A stretch of 55,010 nucleotides of DNA from Dehalococcoidia bacterium (GTDB lineage: Bacteria > Chloroflexota > Dehalococcoidia > CAUJGQ01). The stretch spans positions 1 through 55,010 of the forward strand of contig DATGEL010000080.1 of the NCBI GenBank assembly GCA_035310145.1. The letters run 5' to 3'. The notes below the pieces were generated by a model. The model was given only the letters and a program-made list of their open reading frames with translations. It was not told where the DNA came from and made no database searches. Position numbers and translations under genes: made by a program. This document shows positions 45,303 through 54,470 of the stretch, piece by piece; position 1 is the first letter of the stretch; every line of letters begins with the position of its first letter.

Positions 45303-48187
<2,885 letters not shown>

Positions 48188-51164: not shown

Positions 51165-52412
51165 ATGGATCTCGTTGAAACGCTGCGCACGGCGCTGGCG
51201 TCGCTCGCGGCGAACAAGCTGCGCTCGGGGCTCACCATGCTCGGCATCGTGATCGGCGTGGGCGCGGTGATCGCGCTGATGTCGATCGGCAGCGGTGCCC
51301 AGGCGGCGATTGCGCAGAACATCAAGAGCCTGGGCGCCAACCTGATTACCATCACCCCCGGCGCCGTCAGCACGGGCGGTGTCTCGCAGGGGAACGGCAG
51401 CGCCCAGACGCTTACCACAACCGACGCCAGCGCGATCGCGGGCAACGCGTCCGATGTGGCCGACGTCTCCCCGGAGCTCAACCTCGGCCAGAACGCACAG
51501 ATCGTCTATCAGGGACAGAACGTCTCCACCAAAGTCAACGGCGTGACGCCGGCCTACGCCGACGTGCACGACTTTCAGGCGACGCTGGGCGCCTGGTTCG
51601 CGGACAGCGACGTGCAGGCCAAGTCGCGGGTGGTGATGCTCGGCGCCAACGTAGCGCAGGCGCTGTTCGGCGCCGCCGATCCCACCGGCCAGCAGGTCAG
51701 CATCCGCGTCGGGCCGCGGCCGGTTGCGCTCACGGTCGCGGGCGTGCTGCAAAGCAAGGGCGGTGGGCCGCTGGCCAACGTGGACGACCAGGTGCTGATC
51801 CCAATCACGACACTGCAGTCGCAGTTCTCCAACCCGCGCAACCCTCAGGGCAGCGCCCAGGTCTCGCAGATCGTTGTGAACGCGACCAGCAGCAAAACGA
51901 TCGACGCGGCGAAGCTGGAGATCACCGACATCCTGATCGCGCAGCACGGCAAGGTGGACTTCCTCGTGCAGACGCAGAGCGATCAGGTGGCGGCGCAGGC
52001 GGGCACCACCCAGGTGCTGACCATCCTGCTCGGCGCCGTCGCCGGTATCTCGTTGCTCGTCGGCGGCATCGGCATCATGAACATCATGATCGTCTCCGTC
52101 ACCGAGCGCACACGCGAGATCGGCATCCGCAAGGCGATCGGCGCGCAGCGCGGCCAGATCCTCGCCCAGTTCCTCAGCGAATCGCTGCTGGTGAGCGTTT
52201 GCGGCGGGCTGAGCGGCATCGTGATCGGCGTCGGCGCCTCGCGGCTGATCGACGGCGTCAAGCTCAGCGGCCAGCCGCTGCAAACGTTCGTCTCCACCGG
52301 CTCGGTGCTGCTGGCGGCCAGCGTCTCCGTCGCGATCGGCCTGGTGTTCGGCGTCTACCCCGCCTGGCGCGCCTCGAACCTGCGCCCGATCGAAGCGCTG
52401 CGCTACGAGTAA
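51165..52412 (+). CDS. ABC transporter permease (MacB/FtsX type)
   Basis: The protein (415 residues from this ATG) begins with an amphipathic LVETLRTALASLAANKLRSGLTMLG segment and the first helix IVIGVGAVIALMSIG. An extracytoplasmic MacB_PCD domain follows (about residues 45-275), then three C-terminal helices (ILLGAVAGISLLVGGIGIMNIMIVSV, LSESLLVSVCGGLSGIVIGV and VLLAASVSVAIGLVFGVYPAWRAS). ERTREIGIRKAIGA and the ending PIEALRYE are the classical FtsX marks. AAGGGGA lies about 6 bases before this ATG; an earlier in-frame GTG at 51,150 is less well placed. Likely exports a peptide, antibiotic or lipid. Confidence 0.9.
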   Translation: MDLVETLRTALASLAANKLRSGLTMLGIVIGVGAVIALMSIGSGAQAAIAQNIKSLGANLITITPGAVSTGGVSQGNGSAQTLTTTDASAIAGNASDVADVSPELNLGQNAQIVYQGQNVSTKVNGVTPAYADVHDFQATLGAWFADSDVQAKSRVVMLGANVAQALFGAADPTGQQVSIRVGPRPVALTVAGVLQSKGGGPLANVDDQVLIPITTLQSQFSNPRNPQGSAQVSQIVVNATSSKTIDAAKLEITDILIAQHGKVDFLVQTQSDQVAAQAGTTQVLTILLGAVAGISLLVGGIGIMNIMIVSVTERTREIGIRKAIGAQRGQILAQFLSESLLVSVCGGLSGIVIGVGASRLIDGVKLSGQPLQTFVSTGSVLLAASVSVAIGLVFGVYPAWRASNLRPIEALRYE

Positions 52413-52735: not shown

Positions 52736-53362
52736 TCAGGGAGAGCCGGGCGGGGCGATCGCCGCCGCCGGCCGGCGCAGCGCCACACCGGTGCGGCCGG
52801 CTTCGGCGGTCTGCGCGTCGAGCTGCAGGCCGAAACCGTCGGCCAGCCGCGTCAAGTAGTTGAAGATGCCGACGATGTGCGCGACCTCCAGCAGCGCCTC
52901 GTCGTCGCAGCCGAGGTCGCGCAGCGGCTGCCAGTCGTCGCGTGTCATGCGCGTGGGCGTGGCGCTCAGCTTCTCCGCCACCGTACACAGCGCCCGATCG
53001 CGCGGAGCCAGATCCGGCAGGTCGCGCCAGCGCCGTTCTTTGATCGCCTGCACCAGCTCGGGCTCGCCGTCTTCAACACGCAGAAACTCCGCGTGCGACT
53101 GCGTTCAATAGGTGCAGTCCTGGGCGCCGGCGGCCACGGCGGCGACCATCTCCTTCTCGCGACGGCTGAGCGCGCCGGGGGCGAACATCACCTGGGCAAA
53201 CAGGCTGAGGAACGGCTGCCCGAAGCGCGGGTGGGCGCGCAGCAGCCTGCCCATGTTGGCGACAAAGCCGAAATCGTAGCCGCCGCGCTTGCCGGGCGGA
53301 GCGCTCGCCTCGATCGCGGCCGCGCTCGGCAGTGTCACCCAGGCGGCATCTTGCTCGATCAT
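52736..53362 (-). CDS. AhpD-like / carboxymuconolactone decarboxylase-family peroxidase, probable selenoprotein (in-frame TGA at Cys position)
   Basis: The frame is open for 208 codons if the TGA at 53,105-53,107 is read through. Before it: MIEQDAAWVTLPS, FGFVANMGRLLRAHPRF, FAPGALSRREKEMVAAVAAGAQDCTY. After it: TQSHAEFLRVEDGEPELV, LAPRDRALCTVAEKLSATP, EVAHIVGIFNYLTRLADGFG. Both halves match one uninterrupted peroxidase-related AhpD-like protein. In that family the active site reads CxxCxxxH; here it is Cys83-Thr-Tyr-TGA86-Thr-Gln-Ser-His90, so the stop replaces exactly the second catalytic cysteine. A hairpin follows at once (see 53,076-53,096). Reading TGA as selenocysteine explains this; a point mutation TGC to TGA is the alternative. 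GAGGGG lies 9 bases before the ATG at 53,362. Confidence 0.8.
53076..53096 (-). other. Candidate bacterial SECIS hairpin
   Basis: Counting from the base after TGA on the minus strand, GCACGCGGA (9-17) pairs with UCUGCGUGU (21-29), with G-U at the bottom and one internal G-U. The loop is GUU, beginning with G. A stem of this kind with an apical loop starting in G, about 16-37 bases after the UGA, is what bacterial SelB-dependent SECIS elements require. Here the loop G is at +18. The stem lies fully in coding sequence. Confidence 0.7.
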
Positions 53363-53705: not shown

Positions 53706-54470
53706 ATGAAGGTGAGGGGAAGGAGCGCGGGCCCGATCGCGCTGGCCGCCGCCCTGGCCTTGTTGGGCGGCGTGGCCGGCGGCGCGCTGCCCGCCGCACA
53801 GGCACAGTCGGGGACGCCGACTCCTGCGGCGAACGTCGGCGGCCCGTCGGCCGTGCCCTCGGCGCGGTTCTTCGGATCGGTGAAGGTGGGCAACAGCAAC
53901 CCGCCCGATGGCACGACGGTGGTGGCCTCCGTGACGGGTGTCGCCTGCGGCTTCGGCACCGTCGCGAACGGCCAGTACTTCGTCGACGTGCAGGCGATTG
54001 CCGGCTGCACCACGCCAGGAGCGAGCGTCAGCTTCGCCGTCGGCGGCCAGACGGCGAGCACCACCGGCACCTTGCCGGGCGTGCCCGGTGCGGTCCAGCT
54101 CAACCTTTCCGTCAGCCAGGCCACACCCACGCCGGCGCCGGCGGCGACCTCCGCGCCAACACCGCCGCCACCGCCCAGCCGGCCGACGACCGCGCCGCCG
54201 CCGCCGCCCCCACCGCCACCAACGAGTCGCACGGCAACGCCGCGTCCCACGACCGCAACGCCGCGGACGCCGACGCCCGCCGCGGCACGCCGTCAGGCCG
54301 TGACCGGCCAGAAGCCGGCTGCCGCACAGCCCGCGGCGCGGGTCGCCCTGCCAAAGACCGGCGCCGGCGGCGCGAGGACGGATCACGACGGGCTACTGGC
54401 CGTCGTCGCCGGCCTCCTGGGCTTGAGCCTCGCCGGCATCGGACTGCTGCGCCTGCGCCGCTCGTCATAG
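53706..54470 (+). CDS. Secreted surface protein with LPKTG sortase-type anchor
   Basis: This 254-residue protein begins with a signal peptide (GPIALAAALALLGGVAGGALPAAQA, cut near residue 33). A small beta domain at about residues 50-138 (FFGSVKVGNSNPPDGTTVVASVTG, then CGFG... and AGCTTPGASVSFAVGG) holds two Cys that may pair. A long Pro/Thr/Ala-rich spacer follows. The C-terminus has LPKTGAGG, a hydrophobic helix (LLAVVAGLLGLSLAGIGLL) and a basic tail RLRRSS, the standard layout of a sortase substrate. AAAGGAG lies about 6 bases before the ATG. No sortase gene is present in the window. The beta domain resembles small binding modules common in Chloroflexota and archaea. Confidence 0.8.
   Translation: MKVRGRSAGPIALAAALALLGGVAGGALPAAQAQSGTPTPAANVGGPSAVPSARFFGSVKVGNSNPPDGTTVVASVTGVACGFGTVANGQYFVDVQAIAGCTTPGASVSFAVGGQTASTTGTLPGVPGAVQLNLSVSQATPTPAPAATSAPTPPPPPSRPTTAPPPPPPPPPTSRTATPRPTTATPRTPTPAAARRQAVTGQKPAAAQPAARVALPKTGAGGARTDHDGLLAVVAGLLGLSLAGIGLLRLRRSS

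What the first reader, a model, noticed from the sequence alone, without database searches (positions are those of the whole stretch)
52736..53362. Probable selenoprotein: AhpD-like peroxidase with TGA in place of the catalytic CxxC second cysteine
The minus-strand frame holds two halves of one AhpD/carboxymuconolactone-decarboxylase-like protein, separated only by TGA at 53,105-53,107. The flanking residues read Cys-Thr-Tyr-[TGA]-Thr-Gln-Ser-His, while the family motif is CxxCxxxH. A chance nonsense mutation would rarely hit precisely the redox-active cysteine while leaving the following 122 codons open and well conserved. Established knowledge: in M. tuberculosis AhpD the second Cys of the pair lies next to the conserved His and is redox-active, and Sec commonly replaces such Cys in peroxidases. 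The claim that the host decodes UGA here is an inference.
Basis: partly seen in the sequence, partly recalled or inferred. Interest (0 to 1): 0.92.

Follow-up and report, generated by a model that had tools for sequence, protein, structure and literature searches.

The report
Selenocysteine AhpD-like peroxidase-related enzyme gene
A bacterial gene interrupted by an apparent stop codon almost certainly encodes a selenium-containing AhpD-like redox enzyme: the genome has the machinery to read that codon as selenocysteine, and relatives keep the same codon and RNA hairpin, so it is a well-supported new member of an already known family.

Summary
Minus strand 53362-52736 is one reading frame (208 residues) interrupted only by TGA at 53107-53105, in Cys-Thr-Tyr-[TGA]-Thr-Gln-Ser-His, at the second cysteine of the AhpD CxxCxxxH site. 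The same assembly carries tRNA-Sec (anticodon UCA), selA, selB and selD, and its selD has its own in-frame TGA. Three close relatives (64-68% identical) have TGA at the same codon, as do 17 more distant homologues. Codons after the TGA are under purifying selection (dN/dS 0.20-0.34). A hairpin that fits the published bacterial SECIS rules (8 bp, GUU loop starting 17 nt after UGA) is in the same place in 13 of 21 Sec forms, against 0.7 expected from synonymous shuffles, and in 0 of 12 Cys forms; it shows compensatory changes. The protein scores above the cut-off of TIGR01926 (peroxidase-related enzyme). AhpD-like CxxU selenoproteins have been known since 2005, and a 2026 review lists this family as TIGR01926, CxxU. 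So it is real and nearly certain as a selenoprotein, but a new member of a known kind. Physiological substrate and reductant are not known.

The parts
52736..53362 (-). ORF of the AhpD-like (TIGR01926, peroxidase-related) selenoprotein, 208 aa with Sec86, including its terminal TGA stop at 52738-52736
53105..53107 (-). in-frame TGA read as selenocysteine (codon 86, motif CTYU-TQSH)
   Evidence: TGA at the same codon in L032, L033, L034 and at the aligned position of 17 further homologues
53077..53095 (-). predicted bacterial SECIS hairpin: CACGCGGA-GUU-UCUGCGUG, apical loop starts 17 nt after UGA
   Evidence: fits the bSECIS rules given in PMC13188914
53114..53116 (-). Cys83, the partner thiol of the CxxU redox pair
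   Evidence: invariant in 20 aligned homologues
53093..53095 (-). His90 of the CxxUxxxH motif; with Glu71, Cys83, Tyr85 and Sec86 it has the spacing of the AhpD proton relay

Best explanation
The gene encodes a single-domain, all-helical AhpD/CMD-fold oxidoreductase of the TIGR01926 peroxidase-related subfamily whose second active-site cysteine is selenocysteine. During translation, SelB carrying Sec-tRNA(Sec) binds the hairpin just after the UGA and inserts Sec at codon 86 in place of termination. The product has the five residues of the AhpD proton relay, Glu71-Cys83-Tyr85-Sec86-His90. It most likely cycles between Cys thiol/Sec selenolate and a selenenylsulfide, reducing a peroxide or another electrophilic or disulfide substrate. 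Shown by sequence: frame, family, Sec machinery, conserved UGA, selection downstream, conserved hairpin with covariation. Inferred: actual Sec insertion, peroxide as substrate, and the reductant.
For: TIGR01926 above cut-off across the TGA. tRNA-Sec, 74.4 bits against a gathering score of 47, anticodon TCA; selA 519.6 bits (cut-off 267.9); selB 325.2 (242.25); selD 365.5 (125), whose own active site reads SCGG[TGA]ASK. L032, L033 and L034 have 64, 64 and 68% identity and TGA at the same codon, with dN/dS of 0.20-0.34 in the 103-104 codons after the TGA. 21 TGA forms and 12 Cys forms were collected. The genomes of L033 and L034, G243 and G165, both have a strong tRNA-Sec match. The hairpin at +17 is in 13/21 Sec forms against 0.67 expected (0 of 2000 simulations reach it) and in 0/12 Cys forms; in the 13, 89.4% of cells pair and two pairs change on both sides, far above slid controls. 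AlphaFold2 model pLDDT 91.7; best PDB matches are AhpD-like proteins 6k40, 2oyo, 2prr, 3c1l.
Against: No expression or mass spectrometry data. The genome is a fragmented assembly (148 contigs, 3.6% contamination), and the sel genes lie on other contigs than the window. The hairpin in this gene taken alone is only mildly unusual: z -1.47, P = 0.07 for at least 6 bp given the protein and codon usage. Rows are related by descent, so the hairpin statistic overstates independent evidence. Eight of the 21 Sec forms lack this exact hairpin; four of these have a different one starting at +24 or +36, and the others are weaker. Three genomes with TGA forms (G006, G118, G423) gave no tRNA-Sec match at E 1e-8, though G006 and G118 are only 80-82% complete.
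Confidence: 0.96

Rival explanations
1. Pseudogene: the TGA is an ordinary nonsense mutation in a CxxC protein, and the C-terminal half is decaying.
For: The genome has intact Cys paralogues of the family, such as those on contigs 109 and 128, that could cover the function.
Against: The same TGA is in three relatives at 64-68% identity, the downstream half is under purifying selection and no other disruption exists. A loss-of-function mutation would not recur at the same redox codon in 20 homologues, many of which share a hairpin.
Confidence: 0.01
2. Sequencing or assembly error turned a Cys codon into TGA.
For: Raw reads are not available here.
Against: Other assemblies carry TGA at the same codon, and the genome has the Sec machinery.
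Confidence: 0.01
3. UGA is read as Trp or Cys by another recoding or a variant genetic code.
For: The frame is open under any code that reads TGA as a residue; one gene cannot exclude it.
Against: The same gene ends in TGA and a complete Sec system with a UCA-anticodon tRNA-Sec is present. The TGA replaces a redox Cys, as expected for Sec and not for Trp.
Confidence: 0.01
4. A Sec protein, but its substrate is not a peroxide: for example a reductive dehalogenase-like or disulfide-reducing enzyme on the same fold.
For: The model also matches the AhpD-fold debrominase Bmp8 (6ohi, TM 0.67-0.74), and most of the family is functionally uncharacterised.
Against: Closer matches in sequence and fold are AhpD-like proteins (6k40, 2oyo), and all five AhpD proton-relay residues are kept.
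Confidence: 0.2

Closest known systems
AhpD-like selenoprotein family, TIGR01926 / COG2128, CxxU (PMC1088965, 2005; PMC2398784, 2008; review PMC13188914, 2026)
   Same: TIGR01926 above the curated cut-off, CxxU motif with Sec at the second Cys, Sec machinery in the host, hairpin after UGA.
   Different: A subgroup (window, L032, L033, L034) in which every member found has Sec; identity to the other Sec forms collected is only about 26-40%.
NF041238 AhpD_rel_CFYUT (seleno)protein ('hypothetical protein 1' of the Sargasso Sea set)
   Same: CxYUT motif, same domain; partial match of 59.9 bits.
   Different: Well below the cut-off of 175 bits, and the model is longer (357 positions, matched at 215-342); not a member.
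M. tuberculosis AhpD (Cys130/Cys133) and P. aeruginosa PA0269
   Same: AhpD fold; Glu/Cys/(His or Tyr)/Cys/His relay with identical spacing.
   Different: Cys in place of Sec; low sequence identity.
D. radiodurans AhpD-like 6k40 and D. geothermalis 2oyo (solved structures)
   Same: Best sequence and fold matches (phmmer 6e-23 and 4e-23; Foldseek E 4e-10 and 7e-9).
   Different: CxYC in place of CxYU; 28-29% identity.

Membership tests
TIGR01926 peroxidase-related enzyme | score above the curated cut-off (81.8 bits) | tested here: met
   111.6 bits, residues 30-178
TIGR01926 peroxidase-related enzyme | AhpD fold and the Glu, Cys, Tyr, Cys/Sec, His relay with its spacing | tested here: met
   Glu71, Cys83, Tyr85, Sec86, His90; model pLDDT 91.7 with matches to 6k40, 2oyo, 2prr
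Bacterial selenoprotein | in-frame UGA at a position that is Cys in homologues, flanked by conserved sequence on both sides | tested here: met
Bacterial selenoprotein | host has selA, selB, selC, selD | tested here: met
Bacterial selenoprotein | bSECIS: loop 3-9 nt, upper stem 4-16 bp, G in the first two loop positions, 16-37 nt from UGA, MFE <= -7.5 kcal/mol (PMC13188914) | tested here: met
   loop GUU, stem 8-9 bp, 17 nt, -12.1 kcal/mol; conserved with covariation
Bacterial selenoprotein | Sec demonstrated in the protein | not testable with these tools
   needs mass spectrometry or 75Se labelling
NF041238 AhpD_rel_CFYUT | score above the curated cut-off (175 bits) | tested here: not met
   59.9 bits, partial match
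AhpD alkylhydroperoxidase (enzyme activity) | reduction of alkyl hydroperoxides or of AhpC | not testable with these tools
   no assay; none of the neighbouring genes scanned is an ahpC

The most novel reading that the evidence does not exclude
The subgroup formed by this protein and L032-L034 is an exclusively Sec-dependent AhpD-fold enzyme whose substrate is not a peroxide (for instance a reductive dehalogenation or a disulfide/persulfide reduction), which would be a new selenoenzyme activity.
Probability: 0.1. Interest if true: 0.5.

Novelty: new member of a known kind. Interest (0 to 1): 0.3.

Why it matters
Standard annotation would split this gene into two fragments or call it a pseudogene; the evidence shows that it is intact and very probably selenium-dependent. 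It adds to the selenoproteome of this lineage, which holds many Sec forms of the TIGR01926 family next to Cys forms, a good natural set for asking when Sec is exchanged for Cys. It does not change the picture of how bacterial selenoproteins work.

Tried and rejected
Rfam on the window found nothing at the gathering threshold, so the hairpin was tested by rule, shuffles and covariation. The neighbourhood gives no functional lead: a MacB-like ABC permease and an ABC ATPase on one side, a protein without a Pfam match on the other, and other neighbours in L033 and L034. Pseudogene, sequencing error and variant code were considered and rejected (see rivals). A scan of the window for further TGA read-through frames showed only this one with a CxxU-type redox context; the rest look like neighbouring or antisense frames and were not followed. 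L035, a partial hit at 69% identity, could not be read across the TGA position. The tRNA-Sec model also weakly matches a tRNA-Ser (L002, 48 bits, called tRNA-Ser by ARAGORN), so only the 74-bit match was counted. The first tree lost the Sec labels because the file names drop the code; it was redone. In one search the P value 0.0 for three Cys forms without any hairpin is an artefact of the script; one search replaces that test. Paper searches found no enzyme assay of a Sec AhpD.

Full report
Observation. On the minus strand 53362-52736 reads as one protein of 208 residues, MIEQ...PGSP, if the TGA at 53107-53105 is passed; the terminal codon 52738-52736 is also TGA. The flanks are CTY-TGA-TQSH. 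The read-through protein matches NCBIfam TIGR01926 at 111.6 bits (cut-off 81.8) over residues 30-178, which spans the TGA, and Pfam CMD over 49-99. In the solved relatives 2oyo and 6k40 the TGA position is the second Cys of CxYC.

Sec machinery. The window is contig 80 of an assembly of 5.3 Mb, 99.8% complete with 3.6% contamination. It holds a tRNA-Sec with anticodon UCA (74.4 bits), selA (519.6 bits), selB (325.2 bits) and selD (365.5 bits). The selD active site reads SCGG-TGA-ASK, so it too is a likely selenoprotein. These lie on contigs 66, 91, 49 and 119.

Relatives. Three proteins at 64, 64 and 68% identity have TGA at the same codon: L032, from a record titled as an Acidobacteria metagenome bin; L033, genome G243; and L034, genome G165. 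G165 and G243 have tRNA-Sec. Between these four the 103-104 codons after the TGA have dN 0.18-0.25 and dS 0.70-1.17 (ratio 0.20-0.34), comparable to the codons before it; this is direct evidence that the downstream half is translated in frame. Seventeen further homologues at about 26-40% identity also have TGA at this position, and the 12 other homologues tested have Cys. A tree separates nearly all Cys forms from the Sec forms and joins the four close sequences at 99/99; the CALC Cys form L048 falls among the Sec forms, on a long branch, so a Sec-to-Cys change there is possible but not shown.

SECIS. The review PMC13188914 defines bSECIS as loop 3-9 nt, upper stem 4-16 bp, G in the first two loop positions, 16-37 nt from UGA, MFE at or below -7.5 kcal/mol. 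Here CACGCGGA-GUU-UCUGCGUG (53095-53077) starts its loop 17 nt after UGA and has -12.1 kcal/mol. The same geometry is found in 13 of 21 Sec forms against 0.67 expected when codons are exchanged for synonyms (0 of 2000 simulations), and in 0 of 12 Cys forms. Among the 13, pairs 17-27 (G-C to C-G) and 20-24 (A-U to G-C or C-G) change on both sides, and sliding the partners destroys pairing. The 17-27 change couples a Gly/Ala codon with a synonymous Leu codon, CTC to CTG, which protein constraint alone would not explain. Caveats: rows share descent (the 17-27 change may be a single event), and for the window gene alone the hairpin is only modestly unusual. Four Sec forms of another subgroup have a different hairpin starting at +24 or +36.

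Function. AlphaFold2 with the 20-row alignment gives pLDDT 91.7 and pTM 0.89; the best solved matches are AhpD-like proteins 6k40, 2oyo, 2prr and 3c1l, and at lower rank the debrominase Bmp8 and sestrin. Glu71, Cys83, Tyr85, Sec86 and His90 have exactly the spacing of the relay described for M. tuberculosis AhpD (Glu118, Cys130, His132, Cys133, His137) and PA0269 (Glu36, Cys48, Tyr50, Cys51, His55) in PMC3141380. A thiol/selenol redox cycle at Cys83-Sec86 is therefore likely; peroxide as substrate is the default by family, not shown. The gene stands alone: its neighbours are a MacB-like ABC permease, an ABC ATPase and an unassigned protein, and neighbours differ in L033 and L034.

Known or new. 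AhpD-like CxxU selenoproteins were reported in 2005 with 27 Sargasso Sea sequences and predicted SECIS elements (PMC1088965), counted at 299 and 70 in the ocean survey (PMC2398784), and listed as 'AhpD-like protein, TIGR01926, CxxU' in the 2026 review (PMC13188914). The finding is therefore a new member of a known kind. It is not a member of NF041238, whose cut-off it misses by far.

Noticed in passing
L028:1450-2043 (G000 contig 31, about 51491-52084): The same genome has a second, distant AhpD-like gene with in-frame TGA (CRYUTISH) and a hairpin ACGGGGC-GUU-GCUCCGU at +17, so the host probably makes at least two AhpD-like selenoproteins besides SelD.
   Followed up: partly
L019:309-1241: selD of the host contains an in-frame TGA in its active site (SCGG-TGA-ASK), that is, a probable selenocysteine SelD.
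   Followed up: partly
L023 and L030 (genome G006, contig 124, 3159-4183): Two tandem AhpD-like genes, each with TGA at the CxxU position (CRYUTVHH, CRDUTIHH); no strong tRNA-Sec match was found in that genome, which is about 80% complete.
   Followed up: no
L048, L049, L052: Cys forms with motif CALCQELH; L048 falls among the Sec forms in the tree, possibly a reversal from Sec to Cys.
   Followed up: no
window 45303-47006 +: Fused shikimate kinase and 3-dehydroquinate synthase gene, followed by queuine tRNA-ribosyltransferase and acylphosphatase.
   Followed up: no
window 53706-54470 +: Pro/Thr-rich secreted-type protein without Pfam match, with an LPKTG motif, a C-terminal hydrophobic stretch and a basic tail, resembling a sortase substrate.
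   Followed up: no
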